This document shows positions 24,039 through 42,246 of a DNA stretch of 64,000 nt, piece by piece. Below the pieces are notes generated by a model. It saw nothing but the letters and a program-made list of their open reading frames with translations, had not been told where the DNA came from and searched no databases. How positions within the stretch are numbered: the stretch's first letter is position 1; every line of letters begins with the position of its first letter. A program made the translations under genes and the position numbers. The stretch is from Comamonadaceae bacterium (GTDB lineage Bacteria > Pseudomonadota > Gammaproteobacteria > Burkholderiales > Burkholderiaceae_C), in contig CANFOS010000009.1 of the NCBI GenBank assembly GCA_947448735.1, positions 62,001 to 126,000 on the forward strand, given 5' to 3'.

Positions 24039-24093
24039 ATACTATGGGCTAGGACCCTGCGCAACAAGTCAAATAAACAGAATGATTGTTCAG
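24039..24093 (-). promoter_or_regulatory. LysR-type operator/promoter element (site A')
   Basis: The 32-bp element occupies 24062-24093 on the minus strand. It begins CTGAACAATC and contains ATTTGACTTGT. Its last six bases, TTGTTG (24062-24067), act as the -35, and TAGTAT (24039-24044) lies exactly 17 bp further as the -10. It is placed to drive the alcohol dehydrogenase/esterase/monooxygenase operon and stands back to back with site A. Confidence 0.72.
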
Positions 24094-24186
24094 TAAATCT
24101 GACGCCGGCATGACTACCACTGGAACCCATTTTTGATTTGCAGTATTGTTTGATTCGGCCATGACCTTGCGAATTACTATTGAATT

Positions 24187-24241
24187 TTGAATAGTCCTTC
24201 AATTCATTTGACTTGTCATGAGGGGCGTTGAGGCGTACCTT
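24187..24241 (+). promoter_or_regulatory. LysR-type operator/promoter element (site A)
   Basis: The 32-bp element at 24187-24218 starts TTGAATAGTC, has TTCA at positions 12-15 and ATTTGACTTGT at 20-30. TTGTCA (24213-24218) forms the -35 and TACCTT (24236-24241) the -10 with a 17-bp spacer. It drives the Bug/aldehyde dehydrogenase/alcohol dehydrogenase operon. It differs from site B, 18 kb away, at only two of 32 positions. Confidence 0.78.
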
Positions 24242-24280
24242 AGCTGACCATACAACATCAAAGTTCGTAGGAGACAAGCA

Positions 24281-25258
24281 ATGCTCAATCGCAGATCTGC
24301 CATCGCCGCTGGTTTGGCCCTTCTGCTTTTGGGCGCCATGTCAGAGCCTTTTGCGCAGACTGGCGACTTCCCATCGCGCCCTATTACGCTGATCGCACCT
24401 TTTCCGGCGGGGTCAGTGACCGATGCCGTGACCCGCGTGCTTGCCAATGCGCTGACACAATCGCTTGGCAAGCCGGTGATTGTGGAGAACAAGGCTGGCG
24501 CCCAAGGCACGATTGGAGCCGCGTATGTGGCAAAGGCAAAACCAGATGGGTACACGCTTCTGGTCGGCTCTTCAGTCATGTTTGTGGCCAACAGTCTGTT
24601 CAAGGAGTTGTCATACGATCCCGTTGCGAGTTTCACGCCAGTAGCAAACGTCGGCTCAACCGCAATGATGTTCATGGTGTCGCAGTCTTCCCCGTACCGG
24701 ACAGTTGCCGATCTGGCAGCAGCCCAGCGGACAAGCGCCCAGCCCGTCAGTATGGGTTATGGCTCACCAAGCGGCCAGGTTGCCGTGGCATTGTTTTCAA
24801 CCGTCACCAAATCGGAACCTCTTGGCATAGCTTACCGTGGCATTCCTCAAGCCCTGACGGACATGTTGGGCGGACAGATCCAAGTCGCTGTGGTGGATAT
24901 CGGGAGCGCGATGGCACAGATAAACGGGCAAAAGGCGCGAGCTCTCGCTATTTCATCTGCAAGCCGCTACCAAGGTGCGCCTGATGTACCAACTTTGCAA
25001 GAGGCTTTTCCTCGCGCTAGCGGCACGCTAGAGACGCTTATATCCGTGATGGCGCCAGCCGGTACGCCAGCGCCCATAGTCGCTTCTCTGAACTCGGCCA
25101 TACGGTCTGCGATGGCGACAACAGAGGTCAAGGCGCGGTTTCAGGTTCTGAATACCAAGGTCATGCCGATGGACAGCAAGCAGCTGGAAGAACGCATACG
25201 CACAGACAATCCGCGTTGGGTTGAATTGATTAAAAAAGCGGGCATTGAACGGCAGTGA
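24281..25258 (+). CDS. Bug/TctC family periplasmic binding protein
   Basis: A 325-residue receptor with signal peptide (GLALLLLGAMSEPFAQ) and family motifs DFPSRPITLIAPFPAGSVTD, VIVENKAGAQGTIGA and PDGYTLLVGSSVMF. It resembles the receptor at 38853 (shared GSSTMMF-like and MAPAGTP-like stretches). AGGAGA precedes the ATG. It is first in the operon driven by site A, ahead of two dehydrogenases. No cognate membrane components are nearby. Confidence 0.92.
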   Translation: MLNRRSAIAAGLALLLLGAMSEPFAQTGDFPSRPITLIAPFPAGSVTDAVTRVLANALTQSLGKPVIVENKAGAQGTIGAAYVAKAKPDGYTLLVGSSVMFVANSLFKELSYDPVASFTPVANVGSTAMMFMVSQSSPYRTVADLAAAQRTSAQPVSMGYGSPSGQVAVALFSTVTKSEPLGIAYRGIPQALTDMLGGQIQVAVVDIGSAMAQINGQKARALAISSASRYQGAPDVPTLQEAFPRASGTLETLISVMAPAGTPAPIVASLNSAIRSAMATTEVKARFQVLNTKVMPMDSKQLEERIRTDNPRWVELIKKAGIERQ

Positions 25259-25328
25259 TCCGCACGGCGCTGAATCGCATACGTACAGAGCAGAATGAAT
25301 TTGAACAAGCAATTTACATGGAGATGAA

Positions 25329-26831
25329 GTGAACGAAACACTGACCACAGTGGCAACTCCCAAAGTGCCCAAGGCCCTTGCCTCAATGGCCGCAAAAAAG
25401 CTGCTGATCAACGGCAAATGGGTTAACGCCGCATCCGGCAAGACTTTTGAAAGCATCAACCCGGCCACGGGCGAAGTCCTGGCGCACATCGCTGAGGCTG
25501 GTGAAAGTGATGTAGATGCTGCCGTTAAGGCCGCACGCAAGGCATTCAATACCACCTGGGGAAGTACCAAACCGGTCGAACGCCAGCGGCTGCTGCTTAA
25601 ACTGGCCGATCTCATCGACCGTGACTACGACGAGTTCGCGATGCTGGACACCCTGGAAATGGGAATGCCCATTTCACGCAGCTCTGCCGGCCGGCAAAGA
25701 GTCGTTGGCATGATCCGCTTTTACGCCGGATTAGCCACCGCCATTCATGGACAGAATATTTCAAACTCACTGCCTGGTTCCGTACTGTCGTACACAGTCA
25801 AGGAGCCTGTCGGCGTGGTCGGCGCCATCGTTCCATGGAACGGCCCACTCAGCCAAGCAGTATGGAAAGTTGCACCGGCTCTGGCTACAGGTTGCACTTT
25901 AGTGCTGAAACCTTCCGAGCAGGCCAGCCTTTCCCCGCTGAAATTGGCAGAACTGATAGAAGAAGCCGGCTTTCCGCCCGGCGTGATGAACGTGGTCACT
26001 GGCGCAGGAGCCACAGGTGCAGCCGTCGCGGCGCATCCAGACATTGACAAGGTGGGCTTTACCGGCTCTACCGCGACAGGCCAGGCCATCGTTCGAGCAT
26101 CAGCCGGTAACCTGAAACGGCTCTCACTGGAGCTGGGTGGCAAGTCACCCGACATCATCTTCGCCGATGCCGACCTTGATGCGGCCGTGGCCGGAGCAGC
26201 CATGGCCGTGTTTACCAACTGCGGACAGATATGTATCGCCGGCAGCCGACTGTTTGTAGAGCGCAGCATCCATGACGAATTCGTTCACCGTGTCGCTGAA
26301 CTAGCGGGCAAAATGCGCGTCGGCTCTCCGCTGAACCCGTCGACAGAGCTGGGACCGCTTGCTTCAAGGCTGCAGTTCGACAAGGTGATGGGATACATCA
26401 AAAGCGGGCATGACGAAGGCGCCAAAGCACTTTCAGGCGGCGCAAGTGCAAACACCGGAGAACTCGCGAACGGATGTTATGTGCAGCCGACTGTGTTTTC
26501 GGGCGCACGGGACGACATGAAAATCGTGCGCGAGGAAATTTTTGGCCCCGTCATCAGTGCCATGCCCTTCGACAGCGTGGAAGAAGTTGTCCAGCGCGCC
26601 AACAACACCAGCTACGGCCTTGGTTCCGGCGTCTGGACGCGCGACGTGAGCAAGGCACACCAGGTTGCTGGCGCCCTCAAGGCCGGCACGGTATGGGTCA
26701 ATTGCTACCTGCAGCTCGACCCGGCCATTCCTTTTGGCGGCTACAAAATGAGCGGCTATGGCCGTGAGTCCGGCACCGAGCACATGGATCACTATCTCAA
26801 TACAAAGTCGGTGGTCGTCAGACTCAGCTGA
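25329..26831 (+). CDS. NAD(P)-dependent aldehyde dehydrogenase
   Basis: A 500-residue aldehyde dehydrogenase. The catalytic Glu is in LELGGKSPD, the Cys in NCGQICIAGSR, the cofactor Rossmann element is FTGSTATGQ and the oxyanion/anchor Asn is in VPWNGPLSQ. It oxidises an aldehyde to a carboxylic acid. The likely start is GTG 25329 after GGAGATGAA. Located between a Bug receptor and an alcohol dehydrogenase, it would finish oxidation of the alcohol released by the esterase. Confidence 0.94.
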   Translation: MNETLTTVATPKVPKALASMAAKKLLINGKWVNAASGKTFESINPATGEVLAHIAEAGESDVDAAVKAARKAFNTTWGSTKPVERQRLLLKLADLIDRDYDEFAMLDTLEMGMPISRSSAGRQRVVGMIRFYAGLATAIHGQNISNSLPGSVLSYTVKEPVGVVGAIVPWNGPLSQAVWKVAPALATGCTLVLKPSEQASLSPLKLAELIEEAGFPPGVMNVVTGAGATGAAVAAHPDIDKVGFTGSTATGQAIVRASAGNLKRLSLELGGKSPDIIFADADLDAAVAGAAMAVFTNCGQICIAGSRLFVERSIHDEFVHRVAELAGKMRVGSPLNPSTELGPLASRLQFDKVMGYIKSGHDEGAKALSGGASANTGELANGCYVQPTVFSGARDDMKIVREEIFGPVISAMPFDSVEEVVQRANNTSYGLGSGVWTRDVSKAHQVAGALKAGTVWVNCYLQLDPAIPFGGYKMSGYGRESGTEHMDHYLNTKSVVVRLS

Positions 26832-26920
26832 TCCGCTATTGCAGCAAGAAAAGCAGCTGGCGACTAAGCATTTTTCCGCACATATAGCGCTATGAATATG
26901 TCAGTTCACAAGGGGATCAC

Positions 26921-27976
26921 TTGAACAGTTACCAGATCGTCGAGTGGGGCAAGCCACTACAGCTTCGACTGCTCGAAAAACCGGTGCCGCAAGGCGACGA
27001 AGTGCTCGTCAAAATCACTGCCGCGGGTGTGTGTCACAGCGATGTGCATATTCGTGCAGGATATTTTGATCTTGGGGGCGGCAAAAAACTGACCGCCGAA
27101 CAATTTGGCTCCAAATTGCCAATGACACTGGGCCACGAGATGGCTGGAACCGTCGCTGCCGTGGGTGGCGACGTCAAAGGTCTGACAATTGGGGAGCCGG
27201 TGGTGGTCTACCCCTGGATCGGATGCGGCGTCTGCTCGCACTGCCTGGACGAGCGGGACACCGACTGCGAAGCACAACGCAGCCTTGGCTCGCGGCGTGA
27301 TGGTGGTTTCAGCCAATACGTCCTGGTGCCGAAAAGTCGATATATCGTCGCGTCCCATGACGTGGACCTGAATCTTGCTGCAACATTTGCCTGCTCGGGT
27401 CTGACTTCTTACGGCGCCTTGAAGAAAATGCCGGCCATGACCTCAACCGACCGGTTGCTGATCATTGGTGCCGGAGGCCTGGGACTGGCGGCAGTATCGA
27501 TTGCACCACTTGTGACGAAGGCGGAGCTGATCGTCGCTGACCTTGATGATGACAAACTTCAGGCGGCTTCTGCTCTTGGCGCGCACCAGATATTCAATAG
27601 CAGCGGCAGTGATGTAGCGGCAGACCTCAAACGTGCGGCAGGCGGGCCAATAAGAGGCATCATTGATTTTGTCGGCACGCGTCAAACTGCTGAGCTCGCG
27701 ATGGCAGTTGCGGTCAAGGGCTCCGTCATCGTCATCGTCGGGATGATGGGCGGCAGCCTGGAGATTCCTCTGGCCATGTTGTCTCCCAGAAATCTCACCA
27801 TTCGCGGCTCTCATGTCGGCACGCTTGATGAACTCAAGGAGCTTATCCGCTTTGCGTCAGATGGCCTCTTGCAGCCAATACCTGTTTCCACTAAACCGAT
27901 GAACGAAATCAACCAGATCATTGACGATCTCGAACTTCGGCGGTTTGTCGGGCGGGTCGTCGTCAAGCCGCAATGA
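26921..27976 (+). CDS. Zinc-dependent alcohol dehydrogenase
   Basis: A 351-residue medium-chain alcohol dehydrogenase, paralogous to the one at 22864-23919. It has catalytic zinc motif VCHSDVHI and GHEMAGTV, structural zinc loop around GCGVCSHCLDERDTDC, and Rossmann motif IIGAGGLGLAAV. The start appears to be TTG at 26921, supported by AAGGGGAT just upstream; nearby ATGs are out of frame. The structural loop's spacing and the start differ from its paralogue, so the two may serve different alcohols in the same route. Confidence 0.93.
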   Translation: MNSYQIVEWGKPLQLRLLEKPVPQGDEVLVKITAAGVCHSDVHIRAGYFDLGGGKKLTAEQFGSKLPMTLGHEMAGTVAAVGGDVKGLTIGEPVVVYPWIGCGVCSHCLDERDTDCEAQRSLGSRRDGGFSQYVLVPKSRYIVASHDVDLNLAATFACSGLTSYGALKKMPAMTSTDRLLIIGAGGLGLAAVSIAPLVTKAELIVADLDDDKLQAASALGAHQIFNSSGSDVAADLKRAAGGPIRGIIDFVGTRQTAELAMAVAVKGSVIVIVGMMGGSLEIPLAMLSPRNLTIRGSHVGTLDELKELIRFASDGLLQPIPVSTKPMNEINQIIDDLELRRFVGRVVVKPQ

Positions 27977-28039
27977 CTGAATTCAGCAAGACTGACCTGC
28001 TCCCCACAAACCGTACCCCTTATTCTTCCAAGAAGTCCG

Positions 28040-29851
28040 TCACTCAGGCGGCGGATTTTCATAGAGCCGGTCTTTGTCCAGCATGATTTCATGGTGACCC
28101 GCACCACTTGCCATCATCGGGAAGCAGTTCTCCTGTGCAGCGACGGCCACATCCAACAAGTAAGGCCCGTCATGCGCAAGGCAACTCTTCAAGGCCTGCT
28201 CCAGCTCGGCCGGGTCACTGACCTTGGCGCCGCGCCAGCCAAAGGCAGCAGCCAGCGCCACAAAATCAGGCAGCGAGTCGGTATAGCTGTGGCTGTAGCG
28301 GCTGCCGTGGTTTAACTGCTGCCACTGCCTTACCATGCCCATGTAGCCGTTGTTTGAGATGATCAGCTTGACCGGCAATCCGTGCTGCTTGCCGGTGGCC
28401 AGTTCCTGGATGTTCATGAGCACAGACGCATCGCCGCTGACACAAACGACTGTCTTGTCAGGATGAGCGATCTGCGCGCCAAGCGCGGCTGGCAGACCAT
28501 AACCCATGGTGCCAGCACCGCCCGACGTCAGCCAGCGCCCGGGCTTGTCAAACCGCAGATACTGCGCCGCCCACATTTGGTGTTGACCAACATCCGTAGA
28601 GACGATGTAGTCATCACCGCGCTGGTGCAACAACTTGTCGAGTGTGTGTAAAAGATTTTGGGGGCGGATGGCTGTGTCGTGGTCGGCAAACGCAAAACAG
28701 TCCGCCTCGCGCCATTGAGCGATCCGCTTCCACCAGGCTTGCAGGTCAGCAGCAAAGGGCACACCGGCCAGTTCAGCTTCAATCAGCGCAAGTATTTCAC
28801 CGCAATCACCCACGATGGGCACGTCGACCTGGATGATCTTGTTGATCGACGACGGGTCGATGTCAATATGGATTTTTTTTGCAAAGGGCGCAAAGTCTTC
28901 CAGACGACCCGTGATGCGGTCGTCAAAGCGCGCGCCGACGCAAACGATCAGATCGGCCTCGTGCATCGCCAGGTTAGCCTCTACTGTGCCATGCATGCCC
29001 AGCATACCGAGAAAGCTGTCGTGACTAGCCGGGAAAGCACCCAGACCCATCAGAGTCAATGTGCAAGGCGCGCCAGTGGCTTTGACCAGGCGCGTAAAAC
29101 CAGCGCAGGCAGCTTCGCCTGAGTTGACCAGACCGCCACCCCCATAAAAAATCGGCCGACGCGAATGTCGAATCAGTTCTGCTGCGGCATGAATGTTTTC
29201 ACCCAACGGTTGCAGCGGCGGTCCAAGGTCCGCTTGCGGCATATCGCGCGCCAGTTGCGGCAAGGAAAGCTCCTGCTGGATATCTTTTGGGAAATCAATC
29301 ACCACCGGACCAGGCCGTCCACCAGCGGCCACCGCGAACGCCTTACGAACCACTTCAGCGACTTCGCCGACATGGCTGATTTGGTGGTTCCACCGCGTTG
29401 CGGCTTTGGTCAGACCGACAGCATCACACTCTTGGAAAGCATCGGTGCCGATCAGCTTTGACGATACCTGCCCGCTGATGCAAACAATGGGAATCGAATC
29501 ACACAATGCATCAACCAAGCCGGAGATGGTATTGCATATGCCGGGTCCAGAGGTGACCAAGACAACCCCTACCTTGCCCGTGCTCCTTGCGTAGCCTTCA
29601 GCCGCGTGAACTGCGGCCTGTTCGTGCCGTACCAGTACATGACGCAGCCGCGCGTCCTGAAACAGCGCATCGTACACGGGTAGTACAGCGCCGCCCGGGT
29701 AGCCAAACAGCGTGTCAACGCCGATCTCCACCAGGGTATCGACCAGGATTTCGGCACCATTGCTACGAGCTGGTGGGTCTGCCAAAGCGGTGTCAGCTGA
29801 CTCCTGTTGGCTCCGATTGCCACGAACCTTGCCGGTTAAAGATGCGGTCAT
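28040..29851 (-). CDS. Acetolactate-synthase-like ThDP-dependent enzyme (large subunit)
   Basis: A 603-residue ThDP enzyme of the IlvB class. The cofactor Glu is E77 in [16 protein letters not shown], the FAD-associated middle domain is present, and the ThDP/Mg motif runs from GDASVLMN to [11 protein letters not shown]. Sequence and length match biosynthetic acetolactate synthase, but no IlvN small subunit or ilvC gene is nearby. It ends a minus-strand operon with a TauD-type dioxygenase and a tartrate-dehydrogenase-like enzyme and is under site D, which suggests a catabolic role in carboligation or decarboxylation of a 2-keto acid. Confidence 0.9.
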
Positions 29852-29860
29852 TGCAACGGG

Positions 29861-30937
29861 CTACCGGATAGCGGCGGCGATCGTCTTTCCAAGATCGCGT
29901 GTGCTGCCGGTTCCACCCATGTCGCGAGTCAATGGGGCATGTGCAGGTCCTGCTGCCAGAACTTCCCGAATGGCCTTGAGAACCGCATCGTGAGCATCTT
30001 GGTGTCCAAGAAATTCAAGCATCAACGCGCCAGACCAGATCTGTCCAATTGGATTGGCAATACCCTTGCCCGCAATATCAGGTGCAGATCCGTGTACAGG
30101 CTCAAAAAGGCTCGGGTGGGTTCGAGCCGGATTGATATTGCCCGAAGGGGCTATGCCGATGGTTCCAGTGCACGCAGGCCCCAAGTCCGACAGGATGTCG
30201 CCGAAAAGGTTGCTGGCGACAACAACATCGAACCAGTCAGGATGCAGGACGAAGTTTGCAGTGAGTATGTCGATGTGAAACTTGTCGGTACGAACGTCAG
30301 GATAATTTTTTGCCATGGCCTCTACCCGCTCATCCCAGAACGGCATGGTGATAGAAATTCCGTTCGACTTGGTGGCCGATGTCAAGTGTTTTTTCGGTCG
30401 CTTTGACGCAAGCTCGTACGCATACTTGAGTACACGATCAGTTCCAACGCGGGTAAAAACGGATTCCTGAATGGCCATTTCCCGTTCTGTTCCGGCGAAC
30501 ATGCGACCGCCCGCATTGCTGTATTCACCCTCGGTATTTTCGCGAACGATGTAGAAGTCAATGTCGCCCTCTTTACGGCCGACCAGCGGTGATGGAACCC
30601 CAGGCATCAGCCTTGCTGGCCTGAGATTCACGTATTGATCAAACTCGCGGCGGATGGTGAGAAGTGACTCCCAGACTGAGATGTGATCGGGCACCTGTGC
30701 AGGTGCGCCGACAGCACCGAAAAAGATCGCATCGTGCCCGCCAATCTGGTCTTTCCAATTTTCCGGCATCATGTTTCCATGTTTGGCGCGGTAGTCGCAT
30801 GACGCAAAATCGAAGTGATCGAAGTCAAAGGAAACACCGTACTTTCGCGCCACGGCGTCGAGCACCGCCAGCCCTTCAGGCATGACCTCTTTGCCTATGC
30901 CATCTCCTGCCAGCACGGCAATCCTGTATTGACTCAT
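29861..30937 (-). CDS. Isopropylmalate/isocitrate-type dehydrogenase (tartrate dehydrogenase/decarboxylase-like)
   Basis: A 358-residue beta-decarboxylating dehydrogenase. LAGDGIGKEVMPEGL opens the protein, VRENTEGEYSNAGG and the dimer motif ASNLFGDILSDLGP hold substrate and metal, and FEPVHGSAPDIAGKGIANP binds NAD. AIQESVFTR and the 358-residue length are typical of tartrate dehydrogenases (TtuC/YeaU type) rather than LeuB. ATG 30937 was chosen because SQYRIAVLAGDG is the normal N-terminus. It acts on a 2-hydroxy diacid or D-malate-like compound in the site D operon. Confidence 0.92.
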   Translation of the reverse strand: MSQYRIAVLAGDGIGKEVMPEGLAVLDAVARKYGVSFDFDHFDFASCDYRAKHGNMMPENWKDQIGGHDAIFFGAVGAPAQVPDHISVWESLLTIRREFDQYVNLRPARLMPGVPSPLVGRKEGDIDFYIVRENTEGEYSNAGGRMFAGTEREMAIQESVFTRVGTDRVLKYAYELASKRPKKHLTSATKSNGISITMPFWDERVEAMAKNYPDVRTDKFHIDILTANFVLHPDWFDVVVASNLFGDILSDLGPACTGTIGIAPSGNINPARTHPSLFEPVHGSAPDIAGKGIANPIGQIWSGALMLEFLGHQDAHDAVLKAIREVLAAGPAHAPLTRDMGGTGSTRDLGKTIAAAIR

Positions 30938-31045
30938 AACATTCTTTCTGACTTTATTGGCCTGCAGATCACTATCTAAAACACCAGGCGGCTTGTGACC
31001 ATGCATGCACAGACCGCCGCTCACCGGCGTTCCGGCTTATCTGGA

Positions 31046-31870
31046 TCAATGGGGCTTGTCGCCTTTGAGGGTGATTCGGTTCATGACCCTGCGATAGCCG
31101 TGATAGTCGTTGACAGGGTTGTGCTGGGTGCAGCGATTGTCCCAAAAGGCAATTGCATTGGGCTCCCATTGGAAGCGACAGGTGAACTCCGGCTTGACCT
31201 GGTGCTTAAAAAGATAGTCCAGAATGGGTGCGCTTTCCTCGTCCAGCATGCTCTTGATGCCAGATGTGTGAGCCGTGTTCACGTACAGGGCTTTCCGACC
31301 GGTTTCAGGGTGGGTTCGCACGATGGGATGCTCTGCCCTGAACTCCCGCGGGACGACATCCTTTCCATCTGACTTGATTCGGTCCTCCCGGGTTTTTGAA
31401 ACGTCAGCACGTGCCGAGCTGCTGATGCCGACGAGTCCGTCCAGCATGTTCTTCATCACACTCGAAAGCGACTCGTAGGCAAGGTATTGGTTGGCGAATA
31501 GGGTGTCACCACCAAAGGGCGGTACTTCGCGGGAAAGCAGCATGGATCCCATGGGAGGTTCATCCAGATAGGTGGTGTCTGAATGCCAGATACCGCCAAA
31601 GTTTACTTTCTCATGTTCGAGTTTCTTGACCTCGATGATGTGCGGGAAGCCCTCAAGGCCTTTCACAAAAGGGTATTCGATCGGCTCACCCATTGCTTTT
31701 GCGAAGTCAAGGAATTGCTGGGAACTCAAGTCCTGCTTTTTCAAAAAAATTACCTGATGATCCAGCAGAACCTGCCTGATGTCACGAGCCAGGCTATCGG
31801 ACAGGCCTTTTGAAAGATCAACGCCAAGAATTTCCGCACCAAGTGCTCCTGCAATCCGTTTTACCTGCAT
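31046..31870 (-). CDS. TauD/TfdA-family Fe(II)/2-oxoglutarate dioxygenase
   Basis: A 274-residue non-haem iron dioxygenase. The HxD facial triad starts at H96-D98 in GGIWHSDTTYL, the distal His is near residue 250 in TQHNPVNDY, and the 2-oxoglutarate-binding Arg follows in YRRVMNR. Family members hydroxylate taurine, 2,4-D, alkyl sulfates or carnitine-like acids. ATG 31870 has GAGGA upstream. It is the first gene of the operon driven by site D and lies next to a LysR gene. Confidence 0.92.
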   Translation of the reverse strand: MQVKRIAGALGAEILGVDLSKGLSDSLARDIRQVLLDHQVIFLKKQDLSSQQFLDFAKAMGEPIEYPFVKGLEGFPHIIEVKKLEHEKVNFGGIWHSDTTYLDEPPMGSMLLSREVPPFGGDTLFANQYLAYESLSSVMKNMLDGLVGISSSARADVSKTREDRIKSDGKDVVPREFRAEHPIVRTHPETGRKALYVNTAHTSGIKSMLDEESAPILDYLFKHQVKPEFTCRFQWEPNAIAFWDNRCTQHNPVNDYHGYRRVMNRITLKGDKPH

Positions 31871-31934
31871 ATTGTTCCTCACAGTTTCTGTATCCGAAGC
31901 ACAAATACCCGGAAGTAGATAGTCATCAACACAG

Positions 31935-31989
31935 AATGTAAGAAGCTACGGTCTGAATCACAAGTCAAATAATCTTAGTGATTCTTCAA
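31935..31989 (-). promoter_or_regulatory. LysR-type operator/promoter element (site D)
   Basis: On the minus strand, 31989-31958 carries the 32-bp element (TTGAAGAATC at the start, ATTTGACTTGT at positions 20-30). TTGTGA (31958-31963) is the -35 and TACATT (31935-31940) the -10, spacer 17. The segment also holds GAATCAC (31955-31961) and GTGATTC (31978-31984) as an inverted pair. It drives the dioxygenase operon that starts at 31870. Confidence 0.76.
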
Positions 31990-32966: not shown

Positions 32967-33020
32967 TTGAATAATTAATCAGTTTATTTGACTTATTGCA
33001 TGGGCCACCGCACTTACCAT
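32967..33020 (+). promoter_or_regulatory. LysR-type operator/promoter element (site C)
   Basis: The 32-bp element at 32967-32998 begins TTGAATAATT and contains ATTTGACTTAT. TTATTG (32993-32998) is the -35 position and TACCAT (33015-33020) the -10 with a 16-bp spacer. It lies in the 137-bp divergent gap between the LysR gene (32913) and the citryl-CoA-lyase-like gene (33051), the classic place for a LysR operator. Confidence 0.74.
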
Positions 33021-33845: not shown

Positions 33846-33862
33846 TTCGATTGGAGACCGAG

Positions 33863-34783
33863 ATGGACAAGGGCAGTTTTGTCAAAGACAAGGTAGTGCT
33901 GGTAACGGGTGCAGGTGGCGGGATTGGCCGCGATTTCGCACTCGCACTGGGCGCTGAAGGCGCAAAAGTCATCGTCAATGACTTGGGAACCTCCATGAAC
34001 GGTGAGGGGCGGGATGTCGCTCGCGCACAAACAGTTGCTGATGAAGTGGTCGCTGCCGGCGGCCAAGCTGTTGCCAACGGTGACAGCGTGGCTGACTGGG
34101 ACGGTGCAAACAACATGATCCGTCAGGCAGTGGAAACTTATGGGCGGATCGACTGCGTGATCAATAACGCCGGTATTCTTCGAGATCGGTTTTTCTTCAA
34201 TATGAGTGTCGATGAATGGCGTGCGGTGATTGACGTTCACTTGAATGGCCCCTTTTATATTTCCCGCGCTGCCGCGCCACATTTCAAGGCCCAGGAGTCA
34301 GGGTCATACATTCACATGGTCTCGACATCCGGTCTCATTGGCAACCTGGGACAGGCCAACTATTCGGCGGCAAAGCTTGGACTCGCCGCGCTCTCCAAGT
34401 CAATTGCGATGGACATGGCTAGGTTCAACGTGCGGTCAAACTGCATAGCCCCGTTTGCCTGGAGCCGGATGATAGGCGGCATAGCGACGGAGACAGACGA
34501 GCAGAAAGCTCGGGTAGCCAGGCTGCAAAAAATGGAGTCATCGAAAATCGCGCCTCTGGCCGTGTACCTGGCCAGTGATGCAGCCAAAGATGTCTCTGGC
34601 CAGATCTTCGCAGTGAGGGCCAATGAAATTTTTCTGATGAGTCAGATGCGCCCGATCCGCTCCATGCATACCGCCGAAGGCTGGACACCACAGTCAGTCG
34701 CGGAACGCGCCATGCCAGCCATGCGGCCCAGCTTCTACAAGCTTGACCGTTCGCAGGACGTATTCGATTGGGATCCGGTTTAG
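33863..34783 (+). CDS. SDR oxidoreductase (3-hydroxyacyl-CoA dehydrogenase, HSD17B4-like)
   Basis: A 306-residue classical SDR. TGAGGGIG binds the cofactor, VINNAGILRD follows, the catalytic Ser is in VSTSGLIG and Tyr/Lys in YSAAK. The extended nucleotide loop (VNDLGTSMNGEG) and the long C-terminal tail resemble the dehydrogenase part of peroxisomal multifunctional enzyme 2. ATG 33863 is preferred over TTG 33851 because GGAGACCGAG precedes it. It likely oxidises a 3-hydroxyacyl-CoA made by the hydratase that converges on it. Confidence 0.91.
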   Translation: MDKGSFVKDKVVLVTGAGGGIGRDFALALGAEGAKVIVNDLGTSMNGEGRDVARAQTVADEVVAAGGQAVANGDSVADWDGANNMIRQAVETYGRIDCVINNAGILRDRFFFNMSVDEWRAVIDVHLNGPFYISRAAAPHFKAQESGSYIHMVSTSGLIGNLGQANYSAAKLGLAALSKSIAMDMARFNVRSNCIAPFAWSRMIGGIATETDEQKARVARLQKMESSKIAPLAVYLASDAAKDVSGQIFAVRANEIFLMSQMRPIRSMHTAEGWTPQSVAERAMPAMRPSFYKLDRSQDVFDWDPV

Positions 34784-35739: not shown

Positions 35740-35780
35740 TGAATCACGCGCTTGGCTCATTTTTCAGGGCGAGTGATTCA
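35740..35780. repeat. 12-bp inverted repeat in divergent promoter region
   Basis: TGAATCACGCGC (35740-35751) and GCGAGTGATTCA (35769-35780) are reverse complements at 11 of 12 positions, with a 17-bp spacer. The repeat starts 18 bp upstream of the hydratase start at 35721 and may be an operator. The GAATCAC/GTGATTC core also occurs in site D. Confidence 0.6.
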
Positions 35781-35891
35781 GATGTGTTGGCGCGGATCTT
35801 AATACCAGTCTCTCATTTATTGCACTAAAAAAACACCACTCATGTGGGAATAAACGCGCGCTGCGGTGGATATTTGAAAGACGACCCATTT

Positions 35892-35946
35892 AATAACAAT
35901 GATTCAAATCTTATGAATTGTGGGCAGGATAACGATTCCGTAGACT
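35892..35946 (+). promoter_or_regulatory. Diverged LysR-type operator/promoter element (site F)
   Basis: The 32 bases at 35892-35923 match site B at 20 positions, including TTCAA and the TGA-TTGT end. TTGTGG (35918-35923) is the -35 and TAGACT (35941-35946) the -10, spacer exactly 17. It would drive the Bug receptor at 36005. It is weaker than A-E but shares their architecture. Confidence 0.55.
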
Positions 35947-36004
35947 CATCACGCCTTAAGCACACATTCGATTCCAATGCATTAAAAAATTCAGGAGACA
36001 CTAG

Positions 36005-36970
36005 ATGTTTTTCATACGACGCTCTGTGGCCTTGCTAGCGCCCGTTTTGTTGCTGGCATCGGCTTTGTCCGCCTATGCTCAAACATTCCCGATGCGGCCG
36101 GTCCGGCTTGTGATTCCATTTGGAGCCGGTGGCTCTGCGGATGTGGTCGCAAGAACAATTGCACAAAAACTTTCTGACAAGTGGGGCCAACAAGTATTGG
36201 TCGACAACAAACCTGGTGGCGATACGGTGATTGCTGCTTCGGAAGTGCAGCGTGCCGTTCCAGACGGCTACACCCTGCTTCTCGCCATTAATTCAACACT
36301 GACGTTAACCCCGCACACCATGAAGGTGCCATATGACCCAGCCAACGATTTCACGATCATTGGCCAGACGACAGCGGTACCGATGCTGATACTCGTCAAT
36401 GAGAATCTGCCAGTCAAAACTCTCGCAGAGCTGATCGCGCTAGCTCGCAGCAAGCCTGGTGTACTCAATGCGGGTGGGCCGGCTACCGTGACCCACATTC
36501 TTCAAGAACAGTTTGCCCGCGAGGCAAAGATCAAGTTCACCTGGGTTCCCTACAAGAGTGGTCCTGATACGACCAAGGGCCTTTTGGGCGATGAAATTCA
36601 GGTCGGCGTAGATGGCGTGACCAACAATCTGGCATTTATACAGTCGGGCAAGCTGAGGGCCCTAGGAGTCAGCACGCTCACCCGCCTCAAAACCCTGCCC
36701 CAGGTACCAACGCTTCTAGAGCAGGGAATCCGCGATCAGCGTGTCTCGCTGTCGCATGTGATGATGGGACCGCGCGGAATGCCAAAGCTGATCGTGGACA
36801 AGATCAAAGCCGATCTGGAAGCCATTCTCTCCACACCCGACCTGAACGACAAACTCACAAGTGTCGGCATCCAGGCAGCCTGGGTCGATGGGGACTCGCT
36901 CGTCAAATCATTCCAGACCGAAAGTGCTGTCACGGCCACCTTGGTGAAAGACCTCGGCCTCAAACCGTAA
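36005..36970 (+). CDS. Bug/TctC family periplasmic binding protein
   Basis: A 321-residue receptor. The signal peptide (ALLAPVLLLASALSAYAQ) is followed by FPMRPVRLVIPFGAGGSADVV, VDNKPGGDTVIAA and PDGYTLLLAINSTL. AGGAGA precedes the ATG. It lies behind site F and ahead of a MaoC-type gene, with no membrane component nearby. The sequence has drifted from the other four Bug proteins, so a different ligand is likely. Confidence 0.92.
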   Translation: MFFIRRSVALLAPVLLLASALSAYAQTFPMRPVRLVIPFGAGGSADVVARTIAQKLSDKWGQQVLVDNKPGGDTVIAASEVQRAVPDGYTLLLAINSTLTLTPHTMKVPYDPANDFTIIGQTTAVPMLILVNENLPVKTLAELIALARSKPGVLNAGGPATVTHILQEQFAREAKIKFTWVPYKSGPDTTKGLLGDEIQVGVDGVTNNLAFIQSGKLRALGVSTLTRLKTLPQVPTLLEQGIRDQRVSLSHVMMGPRGMPKLIVDKIKADLEAILSTPDLNDKLTSVGIQAAWVDGDSLVKSFQTESAVTATLVKDLGLKP

Positions 36971-37143
36971 GATGATGTGATGTTAGACGAGCCCTGCCCC
37001 TTGATCTCGCGTGGGCCGTTTTCCAGGTTATGGCCGGCCACATTGCGCTACGGCTGGGCATCAATTGAACTGACCCATAGCTTCAAGGGTAAAGACATCG
37101 AATCTATGCGATCGCGCGCCGATATCAACCAGGCTGAAATGTC

Positions 37144-37650
37144 ATGACAACACCAATCACCCCGCATCTGACCACCACCTTCGACCCGCGCAACCACCGC
37201 ATGTGCGCTACACGCTGGCTCGAGGACTTCACCGTGGGTGAAAAATTCATACTGCCTTCGCGCACCATGACTGACGCGTTATTCGCCGCCTTCCAGCTGG
37301 CGAGCGGCGACAACCACCCTGTGCATTACGACGTTGAATACTGCCGCGCGCGTGGCATGCCCCACATGCTGGCCCACGGCTTCCAGGTTGTGGCCCAGAC
37401 CTGCGGTGGCGCAGGATTGTTCGCACACTATGTCGAGGATTCGCTCAAAGGCTTCATCGAGCAGAGCAGCCGCTTTCTGGGCATGGTGTTTGTAGGGGAT
37501 ACGCTGTATGTGACGCTGGAGGTCTGCGAGATCGTGCCCCAGCGGACAACCGGACTGCTGACGCTAAAGTCCACCGTCCACAACCAGCGAGGAGAGCTGG
37601 TGATGGACGGGTTGCAAAAGTATTTGCTGCTGAAAAAACCGAAGGGCTGA
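37144..37650 (+). CDS. MaoC-type dehydratase (hot-dog fold)
   Basis: A 168-residue single hot-dog protein. EDFTVGEKFILPSRTMTDA, the active-site helix SGDNHPVHYDVEYCRARG with Asp and His, and SSRFLGMVFVGDTLYV identify a MaoC-like hydratase. It stops three bases before the convergent CoA-transferase stop. The 173-bp gap to the Bug gene holds no recognisable feature. It probably hydrates an enoyl-CoA formed after CoA transfer. Confidence 0.88.
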   Translation: MTTPITPHLTTTFDPRNHRMCATRWLEDFTVGEKFILPSRTMTDALFAAFQLASGDNHPVHYDVEYCRARGMPHMLAHGFQVVAQTCGGAGLFAHYVEDSLKGFIEQSSRFLGMVFVGDTLYVTLEVCEIVPQRTTGLLTLKSTVHNQRGELVMDGLQKYLLLKKPKG

Positions 37651-37653
37651 AGC

Positions 37654-38856
37654 TCAAACTCCAAGTACGTCACGCAGTATTTCGTCGCCGTGCTCGCCGA
37701 GCTTGGGCGGCGGGCGTTGGTAGGTGAGAGGAGTGCGTGACATGCGGATGGGGCTAGCGATCATGCGGGCGGGCTTGCCTCCTGCTTCGCCGAGTTCCCG
37801 CACCATGCCGCGCTCGATGACCTGCGGGTCAGCGAAAACCTGTTGCAAGTTGTTGATGGGTCCGGCAGGAACGCCCGCCTCGTCTAGCAGCGCCTGACAT
37901 TGGGCGACTGTAAGACTAGCTATTGCACCTGCGATCAGCGGCCCGAGCTCTTCCACATGGCGCAGCCGCGCCTCGTTCCGTGCAAATCGGGGATCGCTTG
38001 CCAGACCGTCCAAACCCAGCGCCTGGCACATGCTGCGGAACTGCGCGTCATTGCCCACGATGAGCATGATGTCGCCATCACGACAACAGAAGTTGTCGCT
38101 GGGGTACACCGTGGTGAGCCGGTTGCCGCCGCGCAGTGGCACCCTGCCAGTTGCCAGATAGTTCATACCCAAGTTGGACAGCGCTGCGACCTGCACGTCA
38201 AGCAGCGACATGTCGATGAACTGCCCCAGTCCCGAGCGGTGGCGCTCGTTGATAGCAGCAAGGATGGCAATAGTGGAGTACAGAGCCGTCATCTGATCTG
38301 CTACGGCCACGCCGGACTTGCGCGGCCCAGCGCCGTCCGTGCCATCAGGATTGCCGGTGATACTCATCAAGCCACCAATGGCCTGCACGATGGTGTCGTA
38401 GCCCGGCCGCGCGCTGTATGGCCCCGTCTGACCAAAACCGGTGATCGAGCAATAGATCAACCCTGGATTGTCCAGCGAGAGCGTCGAGTAGTCCAGGCCA
38501 TACCGCGCCAGAGCACCGACCTTGTAGTTCTCGATGACCACATCGCATTTAGCGGCCAGGCGTGCCGCAAGAATGCTGCCTTGCGGCGAGGCGATGTCGA
38601 TTTCTATCGACCGCTTGCCGCGGTTGCAGGTCCAGAAATACGCAGACTCGTCCAACGGGTCTTTGGGTGTGGACGACATGAATGGCGGCGCCCATTCACG
38701 CGAGTCGTCTCCCCTACCCGGCCGCTCGACCTTGATGACATCGGCTCCGAGGTCGGCCAGAACCTGCGCTGCCAGCGGGCCGGCAAGCACGCGGGAAAGG
38801 TCCAGCACGCGTAGGCCGTCGAGAGCGCCCTTGCTTGGCATCTTTGCCATTGTCAT
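37654..38856 (-). CDS. CaiB/BaiF (family III) CoA-transferase
   Basis: A 400-residue CoA-transferase. LRVLDLSRVLAGPLAAQVLADLG opens it, and catalytic Asp D187 lies in VAVADQMTALY. ATG 38856 is taken as the start because it overlaps the upstream Bug stop by four bases (ATGA), implying coupling; ATG 38850 is possible. It is third in the operon crotonase, Bug, CoA-transferase under site E. Confidence 0.92.
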   Translation of the reverse strand: MTMAKMPSKGALDGLRVLDLSRVLAGPLAAQVLADLGADVIKVERPGRGDDSREWAPPFMSSTPKDPLDESAYFWTCNRGKRSIEIDIASPQGSILAARLAAKCDVVIENYKVGALARYGLDYSTLSLDNPGLIYCSITGFGQTGPYSARPGYDTIVQAIGGLMSITGNPDGTDGAGPRKSGVAVADQMTALYSTIAILAAINERHRSGLGQFIDMSLLDVQVAALSNLGMNYLATGRVPLRGGNRLTTVYPSDNFCCRDGDIMLIVGNDAQFRSMCQALGLDGLASDPRFARNEARLRHVEELGPLIAGAIASLTVAQCQALLDEAGVPAGPINNLQQVFADPQVIERGMVRELGEAGGKPARMIASPIRMSRTPLTYQRPPPKLGEHGDEILRDVLGV

Positions 38857-39821
38857 TCGGGCTGAATGCCCGCCTCCTTGATCAGTTCGAGCCATAGCGT
38901 CCGGTCACGCTGCATGCGTCGCGTTAACTCCTGGTGGCTGACGGGCTCGACCTCGGTCACGGCTGCCGCGTACTGCTGTCTGACCTCGGGCGACGCCAGG
39001 GCAGAAGTGATGGCAGCGTTGAGCTTCTCCACGATAGTCATGGGTGTGCCCGCGGGCGCAACGAGTCCGATCCACGTAACCAGTTGCGTGCCGGGCCAGG
39101 TTTCGGCGAGCGTCGGCACTTCGGGCGCGGCCGTGCTACGTGTGGCGGCCGACACGGCCAAGGCATTGGCTTTGCCGGACTTCAGGTGCGGCACGCCGTT
39201 GCCCACATCAACAATCGCCACCGGTACCTGTCCGCCCAGCAGGTCAGTGATGGCCTGCGGCGTGCCTTTGTACGGTACGGCCGTGAACTTCACGCCGCTG
39301 ATCTTGGTCAGCAAGGCCAGCGCAACCTGCGCGCTCGACGATCCGTAGGCGACGGGCAAAGGCGAAGATTGCTTCGAGGCGTAGGTCAGAAAGCTCTTGA
39401 TATCTTTGGCCGCAAAATCCGAACGCACCAGGAACATCATCGACGTTGACCCGAGTCCTGACACGGCCTGGAAGTCTTTCTGCGTGTCATAGGGGAGCGT
39501 CTTGAACAGTCCAGCATTGGCGGCCAGCGTGGTACTGGAGCCTACCAGCAGCGTATAACCATCAGGCTTGGCACGCGCGCCGGCCTGGGTGCCGATGACG
39601 CCGTTGGCGCCCGCCTTGTTGTCAATGATGACGCTCTGGCCTAACGATTTACTCAGTGCCTGCGCAATCGGCCTTGCTGTATTGTCAGTGGCACTGCCAG
39701 GACCATAAGGCACGATGATGGTGATGGGTCGCGACGGAAAGTCTGCCTGCGCAAACGCACCCACTGGGGAAAGTGCAGCAGCCAGGGTGAGTGCAGCGAA
39801 TATGGTGTTGGTCATTGTCAT
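38853..39821 (-). CDS. Bug/TctC family periplasmic binding protein
   Basis: A 322-residue receptor with signal peptide (LTLAAALSPVGAFAQ), then DFPSRPITIIVPYGPGSATDN, IIDNKAGANGVIGT and PDGYTLLVGSSTTL. It is close to the receptor at 24281, sharing the LVGSS and SMMF elements. ATG 39821 has GGAGA at good spacing. It is translationally coupled to the CoA-transferase, so the two very likely share a substrate acid. Confidence 0.92.
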   Translation of the reverse strand: MTMTNTIFAALTLAAALSPVGAFAQADFPSRPITIIVPYGPGSATDNTARPIAQALSKSLGQSVIIDNKAGANGVIGTQAGARAKPDGYTLLVGSSTTLAANAGLFKTLPYDTQKDFQAVSGLGSTSMMFLVRSDFAAKDIKSFLTYASKQSSPLPVAYGSSSAQVALALLTKISGVKFTAVPYKGTPQAITDLLGGQVPVAIVDVGNGVPHLKSGKANALAVSAATRSTAAPEVPTLAETWPGTQLVTWIGLVAPAGTPMTIVEKLNAAITSALASPEVRQQYAAAVTEVEPVSHQELTRRMQRDRTLWLELIKEAGIQPE

Positions 39822-39877
39822 ACGTGTCTCCGTTTTGTGGGGGCTCATGCCTTGGTCACCATGACCTCAAGGCTGCT

Positions 39878-40657
39878 TCAGGGGTTTTTCCAGACGGGTT
39901 TGCGTTTCTCCACAAAGGCCTTGAGGCCCTCGACCGAATCTTCCATGCCGGTAGTCGTGCTCACCAGGTCGACAGCGGCGGCAATGCCCTTGCGGTAGTC
40001 GCTGTCGATCGCTCGGGTGAAGGCCGTCTTGCCCAAAGCCATCAGCTGCGGCGACTTGCTGGCCAGCACTTGCGCCACTTTGCGAGCCTCAGCCATGACT
40101 TGGTCTTCGGGCGCCAATCGGCTCACGAGTCCGAGTGAAGCTGCCTCCTGCGCACTGAAGACGCGACCAGTGAACAGCAGATCAAACGCTCGATAGCGAC
40201 CCACAATTCGATGCAGCGTCGCGTAGTGGATGGCAGGCACGAGGCCAATGTCGAGCTCCGGATAGCCGAAGGTGGAATTATCCGCCGCGACCATCATGTC
40301 GCACGAGATCGCCAGCGACATACCGCCGCCGCGTGCCGCGCCAGTGATCGCAGCAATGCAGGGCTTGCCCAGGTCAAACTGCAGATCGCACAGCTTCGCA
40401 TACAGCTTATCGACCATGGCATGCTTTTGCGCTGGCGTGCTGTCCAAGAAGACCCCCAGGTCTAGCCCCCCACAGAATCGCCCGGGAATAGCGCTGGCGA
40501 TGATGACTGCACGCACCTGGGCATCGTCTCTGGCTCGCGACAACGCCGCCATCAGCGCATCCATAACCTCGTGAGACAGGCCGTTTACAGGCGGATTATT
40601 AAAGAGAATTTCGGCGACGCTGTCTTTGACGACATATTGAATGGTTTTGCTGGACAT
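39878..40657 (-). CDS. Enoyl-CoA hydratase/isomerase family protein
   Basis: A 259-residue crotonase. Oxyanion segments GRFCGGLDLGVFL and GAARGGGMSLAISCD are present. The first catalytic Glu position is Ser (GGGMSL), while the second Glu is kept (FGYPELDIGLVP). One-Glu crotonases act as isomerases or hydratases with altered specificity. It is first in the operon driven by site E. Confidence 0.91.
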   Translation of the reverse strand: MSSKTIQYVVKDSVAEILFNNPPVNGLSHEVMDALMAALSRARDDAQVRAVIIASAIPGRFCGGLDLGVFLDSTPAQKHAMVDKLYAKLCDLQFDLGKPCIAAITGAARGGGMSLAISCDMMVAADNSTFGYPELDIGLVPAIHYATLHRIVGRYRAFDLLFTGRVFSAQEAASLGLVSRLAPEDQVMAEARKVAQVLASKSPQLMALGKTAFTRAIDSDYRKGIAAAVDLVSTTTGMEDSVEGLKAFVEKRKPVWKNP

Positions 40658-40703
40658 GGGTACCGTTGGTTACTGCAGCCTCAAGTGGGCCAGCCTGCAA
40701 CAG

Positions 40704-40758
40704 ATGGTAGAGAAGAAAATTTGTACGCACAAATCAAATAACGTGAACGACTATTCAG
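40704..40758 (-). promoter_or_regulatory. LysR-type operator/promoter element (site E)
   Basis: On the minus strand, 40758-40727 carries the 32-bp element (CTGAATAGTC, then TTCA, then ATTTGATTTGT). TTGTGC (40727-40732) is the -35 and TACCAT (40704-40709) the -10, spacer 17. It drives crotonase, Bug and CoA-transferase. The rest of the 40658-40910 gap shows no gene. Confidence 0.76.
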
Positions 40759-40910
40759 CTTTTCTGGGTAGAACTTTCTCGATGAGTCAGCCCTGTTTTG
40801 CATCACCGCTCATAACCTTCGCACAGTTCTTATTAACCTGCAACAGTAAGAGCCGCTGATAAATATTAGCGTTGTTAAAAATTAGCCGTATGACGATTGA
40901 CCGGCGGTAA

Positions 40911-41816
40911 CTAGCCAGTCTTCTTGCCTGGTAGCGGTTCCAACATGCCGCACAACTGGACGAAGCGTGCAGCCGAAGGCGACAGAGTGTGGCTCTTTAT
41001 TTTCATGATGGCAATCGTGCGAGACAGTGAGGGGCGAACAATGCGAAGGCTTTTCAGTTTTGTCCTGGGCGGTGCAGCCATCGCTGGAAGGATGCAAATG
41101 CCCAGTCCCGCTTCTGCCATAGCCACCAGGGTGTTAACGTGGGTGACCACGTAACTCATACTTGGCGACATGTCGTCATCCTCCAGTGCCTGGTTTAACT
41201 TTCGCTGAAACTGGGATGCGCCAAGGGACAACAACGGCAGTGGTAGGCGGGAAAGCTCGCGCAGGGAAATACTGGTCTTGTCTAGCGATACCAACGCTGC
41301 GGGCATGAGCGCAACGCTATCGTCAACGAATATCGGCTCAAACTCGAGATCGCCGTGTTTTTCGGGCATGGGGCCGATGCCGAAGTCAACCTCACGTCGG
41401 CGTACCGCCTCAAGTAGATCGGGCTGCGAAAGCTCACGCACGCTCACGGAAATGGCAGGGTAGGTTTTTGCAAATGCCACCAGCAAGGCGGGTAACCGCG
41501 TACCGGCCACAGTGGGCACGCAGCCCAGTGACAACTGACCCTGCTGCACCTCAGCCGCCTGCTGGATACGCGCCAAGGCACCCTCAAGTTCTGCAAGCGC
41601 CTTGCGGGTGCTGATCATCAGATCCTCGCCTTCCCGCGTCAATTCCACCCGTCGCGTTGTGCGCTGAAACACGGCAACGCCCAACCGTTCCTCCAGCTGC
41701 TTGATCTGCATGCTGACGGCCGGCAGTGACAGGTGGGTTTGCTCAGCAGCTTTGCGAAAGCTGGCATTTTCTGCCACGGCAAGAAATGTGGTGAAGAGCT
41801 TGAAGTTGATTTTCAC
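40911..41816 (-). CDS. LysR-family transcriptional regulator (paralogue)
   Basis: A 301-residue LysR regulator, paralogous to the one at 32029-32913 along its full length. The winged helix-turn-helix (FKLFTTFLAVAENASFRKAA, LPAVSMQIKQLEERLG) is followed by an effector domain from ~residue 90 (GQLSLGCVPTVAGTRLP). The start is GTG (GTGAAAATCAAC). It lies between sites E and B. A weak element copy sits upstream at 41837-41868. The near-identical recognition helices suggest that both regulators read the same operator with different effectors. Confidence 0.93.
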   Translation of the reverse strand: MKINFKLFTTFLAVAENASFRKAAEQTHLSLPAVSMQIKQLEERLGVAVFQRTTRRVELTREGEDLMISTRKALAELEGALARIQQAAEVQQGQLSLGCVPTVAGTRLPALLVAFAKTYPAISVSVRELSQPDLLEAVRRREVDFGIGPMPEKHGDLEFEPIFVDDSVALMPAALVSLDKTSISLRELSRLPLPLLSLGASQFQRKLNQALEDDDMSPSMSYVVTHVNTLVAMAEAGLGICILPAMAAPPRTKLKSLRIVRPSLSRTIAIMKIKSHTLSPSAARFVQLCGMLEPLPGKKTG

Positions 41817-41836
41817 AAAGGCAACAATACTTAATT

Positions 41837-41868
41837 GAACAATGGAAATTATTATTCATTTTGTATAT
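41837..41868 (+). promoter_or_regulatory. Weak LysR-type element upstream of second LysR gene
   Basis: The 32 bases at 41837-41868 start TTGAACAAT and end near TTTTGT, matching site B at 16 of 32 positions, mostly in the left half. It lies 20 bp upstream of the GTG at 41816 and may be an autoregulatory site. No matching -10 was found in this orientation. Confidence 0.35.
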
Positions 41869-42191
41869 TACGGCAATCGGCGCAAAGTATCCCTTGATTG
41901 ACAGGGCCGCCAAACCAGCCAAGCTATCAGACCTCAGCTGCTGGGCACGGAGGCCGAATTTTGGTCGGACGCTCGGGTTTTCGCAGCGGCGTACATCGCA
42001 CGGGTTCGAACAGGTGTCGTGCGTGCGTCCAATCACGGAATCCTCTACAAAATTTCGCGTGTTAGCTTAAGGATCCTTCAACACCGCGACCTGTTGTTGA
42101 TAGGAGCTGCCGGGATTGCTGATCATTGCCGGCCATCAGCACGGTCTCGCCATCTGAGACAGCTGTAGCTTAGGCAGATTGATACTGGAAA

Positions 42192-42246
42192 TTGAATAAT
42201 CCTTCAATTCATTTGAGTTGTCATGAAGGTCAATGAAGCGTAACTT
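42192..42246 (+). promoter_or_regulatory. LysR-type operator/promoter element (site B)
   Basis: The 32-bp element at 42192-42223 starts TTGAATAATC, has TTCAA at 12-16 (with TTGAA this makes a TTGAA-N6-TTCAA dyad) and ATTTGAGTTGT. TTGTCA (42218-42223) is the -35 and TAACTT (42241-42246) the -10, spacer 17. It drives the aldehyde dehydrogenase and possibly the following ABC genes. No gene was seen in the rest of the 646-bp gap. Confidence 0.78.

What the first reader, a model, noticed from the sequence alone, without database searches (positions are those of the whole stretch)
24039..42246. One 32-bp promoter element at seven transcription units suggests a large LysR regulon
Sites A' (24062-24093, minus), A (24187-24218), D (31958-31989, minus), C (32967-32998), F (35892-35923), E (40727-40758, minus) and B (42192-42223) align without gaps. 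The common pattern is TTGAATARTC, TTCA at positions 12-15, then ATTTGACTTGT at 20-30. In each copy the last six bases serve as a -35, with a TAnnnT -10 placed 17 bp on (16 in C): TAGTAT, TACCTT, TACATT, TACCAT, TAGACT, TACCAT, TAACTT. A and B differ at two of 32 positions although 18 kb apart. Orientation always agrees with the downstream gene. Two LysR paralogues lie among the sites. Operator overlap with the -35 is typical of LysR activation, so the element probably joins more than 20 genes into one regulon. Sequence and spacing are observed; the LysR link is inferred.
Basis: partly seen in the sequence, partly recalled or inferred. Interest (0 to 1): 0.93.

Follow-up and report, generated by a model that had tools for sequence, protein, structure and literature searches.

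The report
LysR operator repeated at seven promoters
Seven promoters in one catabolic gene island of a Comamonadaceae bacterium carry the same built-in switch, and comparison across genera shows that it travels with one small branch of LysR regulators, so this is a new, well-supported example of a known kind of gene control.

Summary
In detail: all seven 32-bp sites are where stated and stand well above background. Genome-wide profile scans of the 3.83-Mb assembly find only these seven; a profile trained on 20 sites from other organisms ranks them first to seventh, with the next hit at chance level. All 19 of 19 fetched loci whose LysR matches the window's at 52% or more carry the element, against 0 of 61 loci with more distant LysRs. 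In relatives it mostly stands before homologues of the same target genes. The parent operator looks like a 23-bp inverted repeat, TGAAYAAT-N7-ATTRTTCA; its only perfect copy in the genome lies 19 bp upstream of the LysR2 gene, presumably for autoregulation. The promoter element is this repeat with its inner arm altered and run into the -35. The -10 (TAnnnT, 17 bp on) is conserved; the spacer mostly is not. The two LysRs belong to different branches, yet in other genomes a single LysR goes with the same targets, so they probably share operators. About 23 genes are covered. Binding, direction of control and inducer are untested.

The parts
24062..24093 (-). Site A': operator/-35 element; -10 TAGTAT at 24039-24044; before Zn-ADH, esterase, flavin monooxygenase unit (20214-23973)
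24187..24218 (+). Site A; -10 TACCTT at 24236-24241; before TctC, aldehyde dehydrogenase, Zn-ADH unit (24281-27976)
31958..31989 (-). Site D; -10 TACATT at 31935-31940; before TauD, tartrate-dehydrogenase-like, acetolactate-synthase-like unit (28040-31882)
32967..32998 (+). Site C; -10 TACCAT at 33015-33020 (16-bp spacer); between divergent LysR1 and the citryl-CoA-lyase-like + SDR unit (33051-34783)
35892..35923 (+). Site F (weakest); -10 TAGACT at 35941-35946; before TctC + MaoC unit (36005-37650)
40727..40758 (-). Site E; -10 TACCAT at 40704-40709; before enoyl-CoA hydratase, TctC, CoA-transferase III unit (37654-40657)
42192..42223 (+). Site B; -10 TAACTT at 42241-42246; before aldehyde dehydrogenase + branched-chain-type ABC transporter + SDR unit (42463-49518)
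41836..41858 (.). Perfect 23-bp inverted repeat TGAACAAT-N7-ATTATTCA, 19 bp upstream of the LysR2 start; proposed autoregulatory operator; only perfect copy in the genome
32029..32913 (-). LysR1 (LysR-type regulator; start taken at MKINFK)
40911..41816 (-). LysR2 (61% identical to LysR1; other branch of the clade)
20214..23973 (-). Unit A': Zn-alcohol dehydrogenase, alpha/beta hydrolase (esterase), flavin monooxygenase (Baeyer-Villiger type is inferred from a below-cut-off NCBIfam resemblance)
24281..27976 (+). Unit A: TctC solute receptor, aldehyde dehydrogenase, Zn-alcohol dehydrogenase
28040..31882 (-). Unit D: TauD-family dioxygenase, tartrate-dehydrogenase family, TPP enzyme (acetolactate-synthase family)
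33051..34783 (+). Unit C: citryl-CoA-lyase-like, SDR
36005..37650 (+). Unit F: TctC, MaoC
37654..40657 (-). Unit E: enoyl-CoA hydratase, TctC, CoA-transferase family III
42463..49518 (+). Unit B: aldehyde dehydrogenase, ABC transporter of the branched-chain type (5 genes), SDR

Best explanation
The element is the promoter-borne operator of one small clade of LysR-type regulators, here represented by LysR1 and LysR2. Its parent form is a 23-bp inverted repeat TGAAYAAT-N7-ATTRTTCA; a symmetric copy in front of LysR2 most likely serves autoregulation. In target promoters the outer arm is kept (positions 2-9), while the inner arm is altered (ATTATTTG, positions 17-24) and runs into ACTTGT, whose TTGT is a weak -35 for a TAnnnT -10 placed 17 bp on. 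A LysR tetramer bound across about -61 to -30 would, with inducer, recruit RNA polymerase at seven weak promoters and switch on 23 genes for uptake and breakdown of an alicyclic or branched acid. Shown by sequence: the sites, promoter geometry, restriction to the island, co-occurrence with this LysR clade, shared targets, the inverted repeat. Inferred: that the element derives from the repeat, direct binding, tetramer, activation, inducer, use by both LysRs (my estimate about 0.65) and the substrate class.
For: Seven genome-wide hits, all in 18 kb (19, 44; next E 1.0 and 4.7). 19 of 19 loci with LysR of 52% identity or more carry it, 0 of 61 others. In those 19 loci 36 positions score 24 or more, against a mean of 0.04 (maximum 2) for 200 column-permuted matrices. 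Of 34 sites in relatives, 33 lie before a homologue of a window regulon gene (40, caveats in Tried and rejected). T13-N11-A25 in 40 of 41 sites. Conserved -10, spacer with little information. Perfect inverted repeat 19 bp upstream of LysR2, the only perfect copy in the genome; versions with 0-1 mismatch upstream of the LysR in L060, L079 and L098. Element 206/210 identical between the window and G058, against 0.86 upstream, 0.85 in the spacer and 0.91 downstream. The consensus scan calls none of the seven proposed hexamer pairs, as expected for activator dependence. HTH residues S30 and A33-E42 are invariant over 8 clade rows, some of them near copies.
Against: No binding or expression data. 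G044 (82% complete) has two sites but no LysR hit. G551 has one site before a citryl-CoA lyase homologue and no LysR in the 18 kb fetched, nor in its genome at E 1e-85 with 6 candidates scored per genome. In G376 the LysR beside the site matches only in pieces in different frames. A LysR only 48% identical (L170, genome G169) also has a good site beside it (34.2 with the 35-site matrix, 54; E 0.008 with R2, 45), so the 52% border is not sharp. L085 and L097 pass only at 24.7 and 26.2, while one of 80 reversed-sequence controls reached 26.6. The loci were fetched by LysR and the score and bit cut-offs were set. The draw of 399 family genomes not chosen by LysR had just 3 with the motif, the window's own included. 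The T-N11-A box (centre 19), the 16-bp near-palindrome (centre 8.5) and the 23-bp repeat (centre 13) have different centres, so the exact footprint is unsettled.
Confidence: 0.85

Rival explanations
1. Only one of the two LysRs uses the element; the other has kept the fold but answers to another site or signal.
For: LysR1 stands divergently beside site C and site D lies just past its 3' end; LysR2 has its own symmetric operator (71), which differs from the promoter form. The proteins are only 61% identical (27).
Against: Recognition-helix residues are invariant across the clade rows aligned. A lone LysR nearer LysR2 in G158 (L079, L174) and G153 (L074, L173) goes with sites before TauD, citryl-CoA lyase, ECH and TctC genes, and a lone LysR nearer LysR1 by identity in G149 (L070) goes with much the same set; the tree, however, puts L070 weakly on the LysR2 side.
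Confidence: 0.3
2. A different activator encoded elsewhere (for example IclR or AraC type) reads the palindrome plus half-site, and LysR is a passenger.
For: Positions 1-16 alone form a near-palindrome (strongest dyad, centre 8.5), and a half-site recurs 21 bp on, an arrangement recalled from IclR- and AraC-type operators.
Against: Among the 58 window ORFs scanned with Pfam the only regulator domains were LysR (two proteins) and GntR/FCD (two); a short cupin (2515-2913) weakly hits the AraC ligand-binding model but has no HTH hit. The same half-site forms a perfect inverted repeat in front of LysR2. Presence of the motif follows LysR identity. Regulators elsewhere in the genome were not surveyed.
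Confidence: 0.05
3. The LysRs act as repressors relieved by inducer rather than as activators.
For: The element overlaps the -35, where bound protein could block polymerase; the inverted repeat near the LysR2 start suggests at least autorepression (71).
Against: The promoters have weak -35 and -10 hexamers, none called by the consensus scan (62, 63), as expected if they need an activator.
Confidence: 0.12
4. The sites are copies of a duplicated promoter with no dedicated regulator.
For: A and B are alike beyond the element (spacer 12 of 17).
Against: Mean pairwise identity is 0.70 in the element but 0.27-0.30 in flanks and spacer (61), and the element is kept in other organisms before homologous genes (40).
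Confidence: 0.02

Closest known systems
BenM/CatM regulons of Acinetobacter (recalled, no paper read)
   Same: Two related LysR regulators sharing operators of half-site-N7-half-site form at several catabolic operons.
   Different: Half-sites here are TGAAYAAT, not ATAC/GTAT; seven units with their sites within 18 kb; the promoter form is asymmetric.
NodD and nod boxes of rhizobia (recalled, no paper read)
   Same: Long, well-conserved LysR-type element at several operons, read by several NodD paralogues.
   Different: Different sequence and shorter conserved core; catabolic genes, not symbiosis genes.
CynR, GltC, PsrA (best NCBIfam hits)
   Same: Whole-length LysR architecture.
   Different: Scores well below the curated cut-offs in the 25 best rows shown for each protein, so not members of those named groups.
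Nearest solved chains by sequence: 5y2v 'Rubisco operon transcriptional regulator', 6g1b 'Hydrogen peroxide-inducible genes activator', also BenM 2h99
   Same: LysR proteins.
   Different: Distant (best E about 1e-22; BenM 5e-19); ligands not transferable.

Membership tests
LysR-type regulator (proteins) | N-terminal HTH_1 and C-terminal LysR substrate-binding domain above Pfam cut-offs | tested here: met
   both proteins
LysR-type operon control (sites) | T-N11-A box within an imperfect dyad | tested here: met
   T13-N11-A25 in 40 of 41 sites, all 7 window sites; dyad 12-26 pairs at 3-5 of 7 in the window sites
LysR-type operon control (sites) | Operator reaches the -35 of the target promoter | tested here: met
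   conserved TTGT at 27-30 and TAnnnT 17 bp on; transcription starts not mapped
LysR-type operon control (sites) | Regulator gene divergent from a target with the operator between | tested here: met
   LysR1/site C; also L074, L081, L084, L086
LysR-type operon control (sites) | Autoregulatory operator at the regulator's own promoter | tested here: inconclusive
   perfect repeat 19 bp upstream of LysR2; function untested
LysR-type operon control (sites) | Direct binding and inducer-dependent activation | not testable with these tools
   needs EMSA, footprint, expression data
Named NCBIfam groups (CynR, GltC, PsrA) | Score above curated cut-off | tested here: not met
   LysR1: CynR 166.3 against 277, GltC 164.9 against 350, PsrA 164.0 against 540; LysR2 lower on all three

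The most novel reading that the evidence does not exclude
Two LysR lineages that occur singly in other genomes have been brought together in one island and now read one common operator at seven promoters. If their effector domains sense different intermediates (upper-pathway and lower-pathway acids), each promoter becomes a two-input switch on a single site. The set appears to have grown from one site (TauD unit only) in four of four Bordetella genomes to seven here, so it could show step by step how a LysR regulon is recruited.
Probability: 0.3. Interest if true: 0.62.

Novelty: new member of a known kind. Interest (0 to 1): 0.47.

Why it matters
The operator of a LysR clade that fits none of the named NCBIfam groups can be read from sequence and tested with two purified proteins and eight short DNAs. 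It assigns 23 genes, many of broad families (TctC, CoA-transferase III, MaoC, TauD), to one pathway, which should help find the substrate. It also gives a series of genomes with one to seven sites for watching a LysR regulon grow.

Tried and rejected
Considered and set aside: an IclR- or AraC-type regulator (none among the 58 window ORFs scanned; no link to the element). Promoter duplication without a regulator (flanks unalike). A strict split into a LysR1 module and a LysR2 module: relatives with a single LysR have sites at genes from both sides. The dyad centred at 8.5 as the main operator: it scores highest in the column test but holds at only 3-6 of 8 pairs in the window sites, while the 23-bp repeat is the form found perfect at LysR2; this choice is a judgement. 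The 399-genome family draw was thin because the clade is rare: 3 genomes with motif, 1 with an intact clade LysR; only 13 (motif) and 6 (protein) candidates per genome were scored, and 6 of the own genome's 7 sites were found. In the 149 relatives, seven genomes had weak hits (E 0.009-0.039); only G069 of these has a clade LysR and about seven such hits are expected by chance. C9 flanks L007, L008 and L009 held nothing above 9.2.

Of 49 site rows, 15 were left out of the 41-site logo (8 near-copies from G058 and G015 in L060-L062; 4 from L091, L093, L094; 3 scoring under 24), leaving 34 plus the window's 7 (recounted). Of those 34, L071 has no target homologue; L085 and L097 match ALDH at only 41-42%; for L078, L080 and L083 the homologue is the second-listed ORF; for L098:14129 it lies 375 bp on.
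Full report
OBSERVATION. The seven sites are present as described. Leave-one-out scoring puts six of the seven above every non-site position of the window; F is beaten only by the reverse-strand match that overlaps site C. In the full matrix there is a gap from 34.5 (F) to 20.4 (that overlap) and 11.9; 300 column-permuted matrices averaged 0.007 hits at or above 24. A pattern search of the whole 3.83-Mb genome with up to 3 mismatches gave 6 hits, all in the island, and none for the reversed pattern. A 59-position profile of the seven sites gave 7 hits plus two at E 1.0 and 5.5. A profile trained on 20 sites from 13 other organisms' loci returned the same seven on top (E 1e-9 to 0.005), next E 4.7. 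In these two scans 150 of 360 and 150 of 460 first-look candidates were scored.

ANATOMY. From 41 sites (7 window, 34 relatives) information is mostly high from position 2 to 30 (low at 10-12, 16 and 26), near zero in most of the spacer, and rises again at TAnnnT: T 0.88, A 0.88 and final T 0.88. T13-N11-A25 holds in 40 of 41. Upstream of LysR2 I then saw a cleaner form: TGAAYAAT-N7-ATTRTTCA. It is perfect at 41836-41858, 19 bp from the LysR2 start, perfect in G058, and has one mismatch in L079 and L098; in these relatives it begins 31-42 bp before the LysR start. It is the only perfect match in the genome; three others with two mismatches lie on other contigs. In 29 other genomes, at up to one mismatch, 9 places were found in 7 genomes, of which 3 (G058, G158, G166) are the LysR-adjacent ones. 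With half-site letters shuffled, 12 control repeats gave 0-2 hits at up to two mismatches against 13 for the true one, and 0-9 against 33 at up to three, in 396,520 bases. The pattern was defined after looking at these sequences, so this control flatters it. Positions 2-24 of the promoter element read as this repeat with the last two bases changed, running into the -35; that reading is my inference.

LINK TO LysR. The window's LysR1 and LysR2 are 61% identical, both pass Pfam LysR cut-offs, and share invariant recognition-helix residues with six more clade rows, three of them near copies. Among 149 relatives the element (E 1e-3 or better) was in 6 genomes and a LysR at 54% or more in 6; five are shared. 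G044 has sites without LysR (82% complete), and G069 has LysR with a weaker site (E 0.009). A scan of species genomes with the LysR alignment returned 80 loci. With the window-only matrix, 19 of 19 loci with LysR at 52% identity or more have a site scoring 24 or more, and 0 of 61 others do; one reversed control among 80 reached 26.6. The cut-offs were set. Beyond the 52% border, L170 (48%) has a good site beside its LysR (34.2), and L091 and L094 have poor ones. In 399 family genomes not chosen by LysR, 3 had the element: the window's own; G376, where it lies between a LysR in pieces and TauD; and G551, where it precedes a citryl-CoA lyase homologue with no LysR found. I read the last as a relic.

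TARGETS. Of 34 sites in relatives, 33 precede a homologue of a window regulon gene: TauD, citryl-CoA lyase, enoyl-CoA hydratase, TctC or aldehyde dehydrogenase (exceptions in Tried and rejected). Four of four Bordetella genomes have a single site, before TauD. The window's seven units hold 23 genes, all gaps but one under 110 bp, one of 173 bp in F; no same-strand terminator-like hairpin was listed in a gap between genes of a unit. Units A' and A (flavin monooxygenase, esterase, alcohol and aldehyde dehydrogenases) recall, from memory, ring-opening pathways of the cyclohexanone type, and the rest look like CoA-thioester breakdown with C-C cleavage; this substrate class is inference from families.

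TWO REGULATORS. In a 35-row tree LysR1 and LysR2 fall in different branches: LysR2 with a Rhodoferax MAG (100/100) and, more weakly, Ramlibacter; LysR1 with G058 and G015 (100/100). Of the 18 genomes behind the fetched loci with LysR at 52% or more, 17 have one match at E 1e-60 and G166 has a second, distant one at 39%; G058, like the window's genome, has both. A lone LysR nearer LysR2 goes with TauD, citryl-CoA lyase, ECH and TctC sites (G153, G158), and a lone LysR nearer LysR1 by identity (G149) with much the same set plus an ALDH site, although the tree puts it weakly on the LysR2 side. So shared operator use in the window is likely, not shown.

VERDICT. The genus is Polaromonas-like by the names on same-genus contigs (L073, L086), which is an inference.

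Noticed in passing
window 34831-35721: MaoC gene (minus strand) in the middle of the island has no element of its own; in L079 and L081 its homologue (51% and 48%) lies beside and in line with the SDR and citryl-CoA lyase genes, so it seems to have been inverted here.
   Followed up: partly
window 50229-50260: 14-pair-stem terminator-like hairpin (minus strand) in the stretch 49519-50457, where no ORF of 100 aa or more was listed.
   Followed up: no
window 50819-51622: GntR/FCD regulator just after the island, with no copy of the element nearby.
   Followed up: no
L219 18385-18877: In G376 the LysR beside the site matches only in pieces in different frames while the site and TauD remain.
   Followed up: partly
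L218 9640: In G551 a full operator stands before citryl-CoA lyase with a poor -35 and no LysR in the 18 kb fetched: a possible relic.
   Followed up: partly
L085 10926-12503, L097 8541-10121: A flavin monooxygenase 53% identical to the window's lies next to the LysR in both, suggesting a link of this clade to that step.
   Followed up: no
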